From an uncultured Geobacter sp. (lineage in GTDB: Bacteria > Desulfobacterota > Desulfuromonadia > Geobacterales > DSM-12255), in the NCBI GenBank assembly GCA_937871715.1, contig CALMOE010000105.1, positions 1 through 34,024 of the forward strand: a stretch of 34,024 nt of DNA. Reading direction: 5' to 3'. A program made the translations under genes and the position numbers. Under the pieces are notes generated by a model. It did not search any database. It had not been told where the DNA came from and worked only from the letters and a program-made list of their open reading frames with translations. Shown here piece by piece: positions 1 to 2,322 of the stretch (the stretch's first letter is position 1; every line of letters begins with the position of its first letter).

Positions 1-29
1 ATGTTCCCCGCGTGCGCGGGGATGTGCCG
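1..29 (+). CRISPR. Single degenerate type I-E-like CRISPR repeat at window edge
   Basis: The first 29 bases have the length and layout of a type I-E (E. coli-like) repeat: a TGTTCCCCGCG left arm, a perfect stem CCCCGCG/CGCGGGG (6-12 with 15-21) with a 2-base loop, then GGATG and a final CCG. The known I-E repeats end in GATGAACCG or GATAAACCG; this one ends in GATGTGCCG. A changed 3' end is typical of the last, leader-distal repeat. No second copy follows at the expected spacing near position 61, so any array would lie to the left, outside the window. No cas gene is visible here. The repeat identity is recognised from family knowledge; the array itself is inferred. Confidence 0.55.
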
Positions 30-116
30 GGGAACTGCCATCCTGCCCCCCTGGCATGAGGGGCGAGGAACGGAGCCGGCAGTTGCAGCAGCGAAACGGT
101 TTTTCTGCCCGGGCGC

Positions 117-148
117 AAAAAAACCCGGAGAGAATTGGCTTCTCCGGG
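117..148 (-). terminator. Intrinsic terminator of the rep-like helicase gene
   Basis: An 8-bp stem, CCCGGAGA (124-131) with TCTCCGGG (141-148), has a 9-base loop. It is flanked by seven A at 117-123, which read as a T-tract on the minus strand just after the hairpin. It lies about 140 bases past the helicase stop codon and would end that transcript. The stretch between (149-285) holds no gene I can support; a short minus-strand frame there overlaps the helicase end and looks like a shadow. Confidence 0.7.
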
Positions 149-285
149 GCTTTCCCTGCTCTCACTCGGGGCGGGATTGTCAGAGGTCGGGGCAGGCCAG
201 CTTGATGTTGGTCATCTCCTCCATGGCGTAGCGGATACCCTCCCTCCGCCCGTTTCGATGGGCGCACCCAGGTTGTGCTCCACGC

Positions 286-2322
286 CTAACCACCCAGCAT
301 GGCCCGGAGCTGGGCGAAGGTGTTGTCGGCCATCTTGTCGTTCTCCTCTTCCGTCGCCGTCCTTGCCGTTGCCCCATGCTGGTGGCAAAGGAGTTCGTCG
401 GGGATCTCGGCCAGGAAGCGGGAGGGGGTGCGCTCCTCGTTGCGTCCGTACTTGCGCCGCATCAGGCAGCGGCTGATGGTGAGGCGCTTCTTCGCCCGGG
501 TGATCCCCACGTACATCAGGCGGCGCTCCTCGTCCACGCTCATATCCTCGTAGATGGAGCGGCGGTGGGGGAGGATCTCCTCCTCCAGGCCGACGAGGAA
601 GACGTGGGGGAACTCCAGCCCCTTGCTGGAGTGGAGGGACATGAGGGTGACCGCGTCCTGGCCGTGCTCCTTGCTGTCCCGATCCCCCCGGTCCTCGTCC
701 ATCAGGGCCAGCCTCTCCAGGAAGCCGCTCAGGGTCGGGGAGGGGAATCGCTCCTCGAAGCTTGCCAGGGAGTTGACGATCTGCTCCACGTTCTCCACCT
801 TGCGGCGGCAGGCGGTCTTGTCGTCGCTTGAGGCCATCAGCTCCTCCTCGATGCCGAGGCGGCTGAAGAGCTCCCTGGCTTTCTCCCCCAGGCGACGGCC
901 GTCGCTGAAGAGCTCCGCCTCCCCCTGGACCAGGCGGAAGAAGTCGTAGATCCGGTGCCGGGCCGCCGGGGCTATGCCCGGAATCTCCTCAACCCGACCC
1001 AATGCCTGGAAGAGGGGGACCCGCTCGGCCATGGACCAGGCGTTGACCTTCTCCACCGATGATTCGCCGATCCCCCTGCGGGGGAAGTTGATGATCCGCA
1101 GGAGAGCCTGCTCGTCCTCCTGGTTGGCCAGGAGTTTCAGCCAGGAGAGGGTGTCCTTGACCTCCTTGCGGTCGTAGAAGCGCATCCCCCCCACGAGGAC
1201 GTAGGGTACCCCCTCGTAGCGGAGCTGCTCCTCGAATGCCCTGCTCTGGGCATTGGTGCGGTAGAGGATGCAGAAGTCGGCAAAGGGGGCGTCCCGGCGG
1301 AAGCGCTCCGTCTGGATACTCTCCACCACCGTGGTCGCCTCCTCCTCCTCGTCGGCCATGACCACCAGGTCGATGGGGCCGCCGGGGCCGCTCTCCGTCC
1401 AGAGGGTCTTCTCCTTGCGGGTCGGGTTGTGGCGGATGACATGGTTGGCCGCCTTGAGGATGTTGCCGCTGCAGCGGTAGTTCTGCTCCAGCTTGATCAC
1501 CCGGCATCCGGGGTAATCCTCCTCGAAGGCGAGGATCTTGCGCACGTCCGCCCCCCGCCAGCCGTAGATGGACTGGTCGTCGTCCCCCACCACGCAGAGG
1601 TTGCGCGAGCCGGCTGCCAGGAGGGAGATGAACTGGTACTGGGAGGGGTTGGTGTCCTGGTACTCGTCGACCATCAGGTAGCGGAAGCGCTCCTGCCAGC
1701 GGCCGAGCACCTCGGCGTTCTCCCTGAGGAGACGGACGCTGAGGAGGATGATGTCATCGAAGTCAACCGAGTTGCAGGCTTTGAGCTGGGCCTGGTAGCG
1801 GGGGTAGACCCGGGCGGTGAGGAGCTCGGTGTCGTCGCTGAAGCGGGGCTTGAACTCCCCCGGGGCAATCATGGCGTTCTTCAGCATGGAGATCTTCCAG
1901 AGAACCGTCTCCGGGGTGATCTTCTTCGGGTCCGCCCCCAGCTCGCGCATGGTCTGGCGGATCAGCCCCACCTGGTCCGAGCTGTCGAAGATGGAGAAGT
2001 TGGGGCGGTAGCCTATGTGGCGGCACTCGGCGCGCAGGATGCGCACCCCGAGGGAGTGGAAGGTGGAGACGATCACCCCATCGCGCCGCTCCTTCCCCAC
2101 CAGCTCCTCCAGCCGCTCCCCCATCTCCCTGGCCGCCTTGTTGGTGAAGGTGACGGCGAGGATGTTCTCCGGAGCCACACCCTTGTGCAGCAGGAGGTGG
2201 GCGATGCGGCAGGTAATTACCCGGGTCTTCCCCGAGCCGGCGCCCGCCAGGACGAGGAGCGGACCTTCGGTCTGCCTGACAGCCTGGCGCTGTTCACTGT
2301 TGAGGGAGGAGATAAAATCCAT
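286..2322 (-). CDS. rep: ATP-dependent 3'-5' DNA helicase, Rep/UvrD (SF1A) family
   Basis: 678 residues, close to the length of E. coli Rep. The SF1A motifs are in order: Walker A AGAGSGKT (26-33), TFTNKAA (motif Ia, about 58-64), Walker B VDEYQD (218-223), GDDDQSIYGWRG (246-257), QNYR (280-283), the HSSKGLEF motif, and VGITRAKK near residue 610. The C-terminus ends in a Rep-like AQLRAML segment, which favours Rep over PcrA or UvrD. Rep-type helicases clear proteins ahead of replication forks and aid restart; that role is inferred from the family. The start ATG has only a weak ribosome site (AGGCACCCT). It is divergent from arnD across a gap of about 150 bases. Rep versus PcrA naming is the main doubt. 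Confidence 0.93.
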   Translation of the reverse strand: MDFISSLNSEQRQAVRQTEGPLLVLAGAGSGKTRVITCRIAHLLLHKGVAPENILAVTFTNKAAREMGERLEELVGKERRDGVIVSTFHSLGVRILRAECRHIGYRPNFSIFDSSDQVGLIRQTMRELGADPKKITPETVLWKISMLKNAMIAPGEFKPRFSDDTELLTARVYPRYQAQLKACNSVDFDDIILLSVRLLRENAEVLGRWQERFRYLMVDEYQDTNPSQYQFISLLAAGSRNLCVVGDDDQSIYGWRGADVRKILAFEEDYPGCRVIKLEQNYRCSGNILKAANHVIRHNPTRKEKTLWTESGPGGPIDLVVMADEEEEATTVVESIQTERFRRDAPFADFCILYRTNAQSRAFEEQLRYEGVPYVLVGGMRFYDRKEVKDTLSWLKLLANQEDEQALLRIINFPRRGIGESSVEKVNAWSMAERVPLFQALGRVEEIPGIAPAARHRIYDFFRLVQGEAELFSDGRRLGEKARELFSRLGIEEELMASSDDKTACRRKVENVEQIVNSLASFEERFPSPTLSGFLERLALMDEDRGDRDSKEHGQDAVTLMSLHSSKGLEFPHVFLVGLEEEILPHRRSIYEDMSVDEERRLMYVGITRAKKRLTISRCLMRRKYGRNEERTPSRFLAEIPDELLCHQHGATARTATEEENDKMADNTFAQLRAMLGG

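What the first reader, a model, noticed from the sequence alone, without database searches (positions are those of the whole stretch)
1..29. Degenerate type I-E CRISPR repeat at the window edge
The 29 bases carry a perfect CCCCGCG/CGCGGGG stem in the type I-E layout with an altered 3' end, as in a terminal leader-distal repeat. It suggests a full array and perhaps cas genes just left of the window, with the helicase unit forming the far flank. A solitary repeat would be equally notable.
Basis: partly seen in the sequence, partly recalled or inferred. Interest (0 to 1): 0.6.

Follow-up and report, generated by a model that had tools for sequence, protein, structure and literature searches.

The report
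Lone CRISPR repeat at contig start
The first 29 bases are a genuine but ordinary type I-E CRISPR repeat, most likely the last repeat of an array cut off where the assembled contig begins; this genome assembly holds no other copy and none of the four Cas protein families tested.

Summary
Window 1-29 (ATGTTCCCCGCGTGCGCGGGGATGTGCCG) matches the type I-E repeat of related genomes (ATGTTCCCCGCNNNNGCGGGGATGAACCG) at 23 of 25 fixed positions. The only two changes are AA to TG near the 3' end. The best match in 3.4 Mb of simulated sequence, both strands, had five mismatches. The window is an entire contig, so position 1 is a contig start and nothing to the left can be read. Orientation places any leader and further repeats to the left. 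A 5'-intact, 3'-eroded repeat is also what the leader-distal end of three of six arrays in relatives looks like. The 97%-complete assembly holds no second repeat and no Cas1, Cas7e, Cse1 or Cas3-HD, so the "cas genes just left" part is unsupported. A decayed solitary relic is the main rival. The "helicase unit" is an ordinary UvrD/PcrA gene with a match in all 38 genomes searched, so it has no CRISPR link. Between repeat and helicase lies a 20-codon stub of an aldehyde dehydrogenase gene that is whole in the sister genome. This is ordinary and of low interest.

The parts
1..29 (+). type I-E CRISPR repeat, 23/25 fixed positions as in relatives' arrays, 3' end changed (AA to TG at 25-26)
30..140 (.). 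flank with no further repeat and no nucleotide similarity found in the same-genus genome
124..148 (.). strong 9-bp hairpin (CCCGGAGAG paired with CTTCTCCGGG) just beyond the aldehyde dehydrogenase stub, possible transcription terminator (not called by the consensus scan)
   Evidence: sequence
180..248 (-). C-terminal stub (about 20 codons, REGIRYAMEEMTNIKLACPDL*) of an aldehyde dehydrogenase gene that is whole (475 aa) in the same-genus genome G001
286..2322 (-). UvrD/PcrA-type DNA helicase, housekeeping neighbour, no CRISPR role indicated

Best explanation
Bases 1-29 are the last (leader-distal) repeat of a type I-E CRISPR array whose body lies to the left and was lost when the assembly broke at the repeat, or was not binned. 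In a working array the transcript would run left to right. Each hairpin would be cut by Cas6e to give crRNAs, and the last repeat would only close the final spacer, so its 3' end is free to drift. Shown: the repeat's identity, its orientation, its 3' changes, and the contig edge at its first base. Inferred: the missing array and any crRNA production. Whether the cell has or had its own Cas proteins is open; none of the four families tested was found.
For: 23/25 match to I-E repeats of the same family and order, against a best of 5 mismatches in simulated sequence. Related genomes carry real arrays with 61-base period, with Cse1 found in G002, G005 and G009. The terminal repeats of G005, G030 and G037 arrays have 19/24, 21/24 and 16/24 of the first positions intact but only 0/5, 2/5 and 0/5 of the last five, like the window's 3' change. 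The contig begins exactly at repeat base 1, as expected if several different sequences precede it in the reads. In the relative G009 an array also lies across contig ends (C33 and C49). CRISPRDetect authors state that repeat mutations accumulate at the leader-distal end (PMC4869251).
Against: No second repeat at up to 3 mismatches in the assembly, no convincing partial copy at another contig edge, and no Cas1, Cas7e, Cse1 or Cas3-HD despite 97% completeness. The same-genus genome has neither Cse1 nor Cas3-HD nor a repeat.
Confidence: 0.62

Rival explanations
1. A solitary relic: one decayed repeat left after the array and cas genes were deleted, in a flank that is itself decaying. It has no function now.
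For: No other repeat and none of four tested cas families in the 97%-complete assembly. The adjacent aldehyde dehydrogenase gene is reduced to a 20-codon stub, about 1.5 kb shorter than the same stretch in G001. A comparable lone repeat with a changed 3' end (ATGTTCCCCGCATTCGCGGGGATGATTGT) sits in G019, which lacks Cse1, with 335 readable bases upstream and no clear second repeat.
Against: The contig starts exactly at the repeat's first base, a coincidence if nothing repeated lies to the left.
Confidence: 0.28
2. A solitary repeat unit of a mobile element acting as an RNA anti-CRISPR (Racr), left of which a prophage begins.
For: Such units mimic CRISPR repeats and stand alone in viral genomes (PMC10651486). 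I-E repeats with the same hairpin occur singly or in pairs in viral contigs.
Against: None of the 20 proteins of the window scanned against Pfam is phage-like, the exact 27-mer is absent from 2.9 million viral contigs, and no type I-E Cas target was found in the host. The side where a promoter would lie is missing.
Confidence: 0.05
3. An unrelated GC-rich hairpin (terminator or REP-like element) that looks like a repeat by chance.
For: GC-rich genome; the stem alone is a simple palindrome.
Against: The bases outside the stem (ATGTT before, ATG and CCG after) also match. Single copy, so not a REP family. No T run follows.
Confidence: 0.03

Closest known systems
Type I-E CRISPR repeats of related genomes (G002, G005, G009, G030, G037, G038, G048)
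   Same: 29 bases, TGTTCCCCGC-N4-GCGGGGATG core, hairpin; those arrays show a 61-base period
   Different: here one copy only, at a contig end, with AACCG changed to TGCCG; no cas family found among four tested
Degenerate leader-distal repeats (for example array ends in G005, G030, G037)
   Same: intact 5' part, altered 3' end
   Different: the rest of the array cannot be seen
Solitary repeat units / RNA anti-CRISPRs (PMC10651486)
   Same: single repeat-like hairpin without cas genes
   Different: no viral context, no visible promoter, no host I-E target found

Membership tests
Type I-E CRISPR repeat | 29-base repeat with the GTTCCCCGC...GCGGGGAT hairpin matching arrays in relatives | tested here: met
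   2 mismatches in 25 fixed positions
Type I-E CRISPR array | at least two repeats at about 61-base period | tested here: inconclusive
   no repeat downstream; the upstream side is not in the assembly
Type I-E CRISPR-Cas system | Cascade genes (Cse1, Cas7e), Cas3, Cas1 in the genome | tested here: not met
   none in the 97%-complete assembly
Leader-distal terminal repeat | intact 5' part, eroded 3' end, no repeat after it | tested here: met
   same pattern in three relatives' array ends, while three others end in a near-intact repeat
RNA anti-CRISPR solitary repeat unit | located on a virus, prophage or plasmid with a promoter upstream | tested here: inconclusive
   visible side carries ordinary chromosomal genes; upstream side missing

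The most novel reading that the evidence does not exclude
A genome without Cas proteins keeps a solitary, structured I-E repeat that has been put to another use, such as an RNA anti-CRISPR of an integrated element left of the contig start.
Probability: 0.04. Interest if true: 0.4.

Novelty: new member of a known kind. Interest (0 to 1): 0.12.

Why it matters
Mainly as a correction. It shows that the repeat is real, that the missing context is an assembly edge, and that the neighbouring helicase has no demonstrated CRISPR link. If the array exists, its spacers would record viruses of this uncultured lineage.

Tried and rejected
Rfam found nothing at 1-29, which says little because a single short repeat scores low. 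The sister genome's left flank (L085:1-160) had no match in the own assembly, so no partner contig was found that way. Phage records gave no match to window 1-500. The PcrA scan of named genomes returned no closer relative than Geotalea sp. SG265 at 63%; I infer a Geobacter-like, Desulfuromonadia-type organism, not proven.

Full report
What is there. The window is the whole of contig 105 of a 304-contig, 3.43-Mb assembly, 97% complete, so position 1 is a contig start. Bases 1-29 are ATGTTCCCCGCGTGCGCGGGGATGTGCCG. The core 22-mer occurs once in the genome at up to 3 mismatches and 0 times in shuffled window sequence.

Is it a CRISPR repeat? A search of 58 genomes, the own one and 57 relatives from the same genus to the same order, found the core at up to 2 mismatches in nine, the own genome included. 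In seven of the other eight it forms arrays at 61-base period, with consensus [ACG]TGTTCCCCGC-N4-GCGGGGATGAACCG. Cse1, the type I-E marker, is present in three of those seven (G002, G005, G009); the other four array genomes were not in the set searched for Cse1. Taking N4 as free, the window's 29-mer matches 23 of 25 fixed positions. A 3.4-Mb simulated sequence with the window's trinucleotide statistics gave 5 mismatches at best on one strand and 6 on the other. The identification as a type I-E repeat is secure. The first-base A is normal, since G009 and G038 repeats also begin with A. The deviation is AA to TG at positions 25-26.

Where in an array? The repeat reads in the canonical direction on the + strand, so a leader would be to the left, and what follows on the right would be either a spacer or the distal flank. 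No repeat follows at about 61 bases. In G005, G030 and G037 the last recognisable repeat keeps 19, 21 and 16 of its first 24 positions but only 0, 2 and 0 of its last five. In G002, G009 and G048 the last recognisable repeat is intact or has a single change. The window's repeat, intact over 24 positions and changed in 2 of the last 5, fits a leader-distal repeat. That the contig starts precisely at repeat base 1 is what an assembler does when more than one sequence precedes the repeat; this is an inference from how assembly graphs work, not a test. In G009 the array lies across contig ends, a precedent.

What argues against a standing system. Cas7e, Cas1, Cse1 and Cas3-HD are absent from the own assembly, and a search for the right-hand part of the repeat found no convincing candidate on another contig. 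The controls of those searches rang in known genomes. The same-genus genome G001 lacks Cse1, Cas3-HD and the repeat. An array may therefore be cas-less, or array and cas genes may sit on contigs that were not binned, or only a relic remains. G019, also without Cse1, holds a similar lone repeat with a changed 3' end, beside a HicA-like toxin gene (identified by eye from the sequence), with 335 bases upstream and no clear second repeat, so lone relics appear to occur in this order.

Surroundings. The helicase (286-2322, - strand) is UvrD/PcrA, with a match in all 38 genomes searched. In G001 a 475-aa aldehyde dehydrogenase gene separates it from the shared region at 141-180. In the window only its last 20 or so codons remain, at 180-248, followed by a short unalignable stretch and then the helicase end. 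The own genome's other aldehyde dehydrogenases are at most 37% identical to the G001 protein, so this gene is lost here rather than moved, as far as the assembly shows. Of the remaining window genes, the 19 others scanned are ordinary chromosomal genes or lack a Pfam match.

Verdict. It is an ordinary type I-E repeat at an assembly edge: probably the end of an array (0.62), otherwise a solitary relic (0.28).

Noticed in passing
window 180-290: An aldehyde dehydrogenase gene that is whole in the same-genus genome (L085:214-1641) is reduced here to a stub of about 20 codons next to the helicase gene; no close copy elsewhere in the genome.
   Followed up: partly
L003 (G019 contig 17), 11642-11663 of the contig, - strand: Another lone type I-E-like repeat with a changed 3' end in a genome without Cse1, near a HicA-like toxin gene; a poor possible second repeat lies 57 bases upstream.
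   Followed up: partly
L175:3144-3233 and L177 (same stretch, reversed): Two related viral contigs carry a two-repeat mini-array of I-E repeats with one 32-base spacer between genes that look like phage structural genes (a guess from the translations). The spacer's first 26 bases occur in no other viral contig.
   Followed up: partly
L176:9740-9870: A viral contig has a repeat-like unit with an enlarged loop, then an intact I-E repeat followed at once by a hairpin with a T run (GCCGGTAAACCGGCCTTTTT), which looks like a small expressed RNA, possibly an RNA anti-CRISPR.
   Followed up: no
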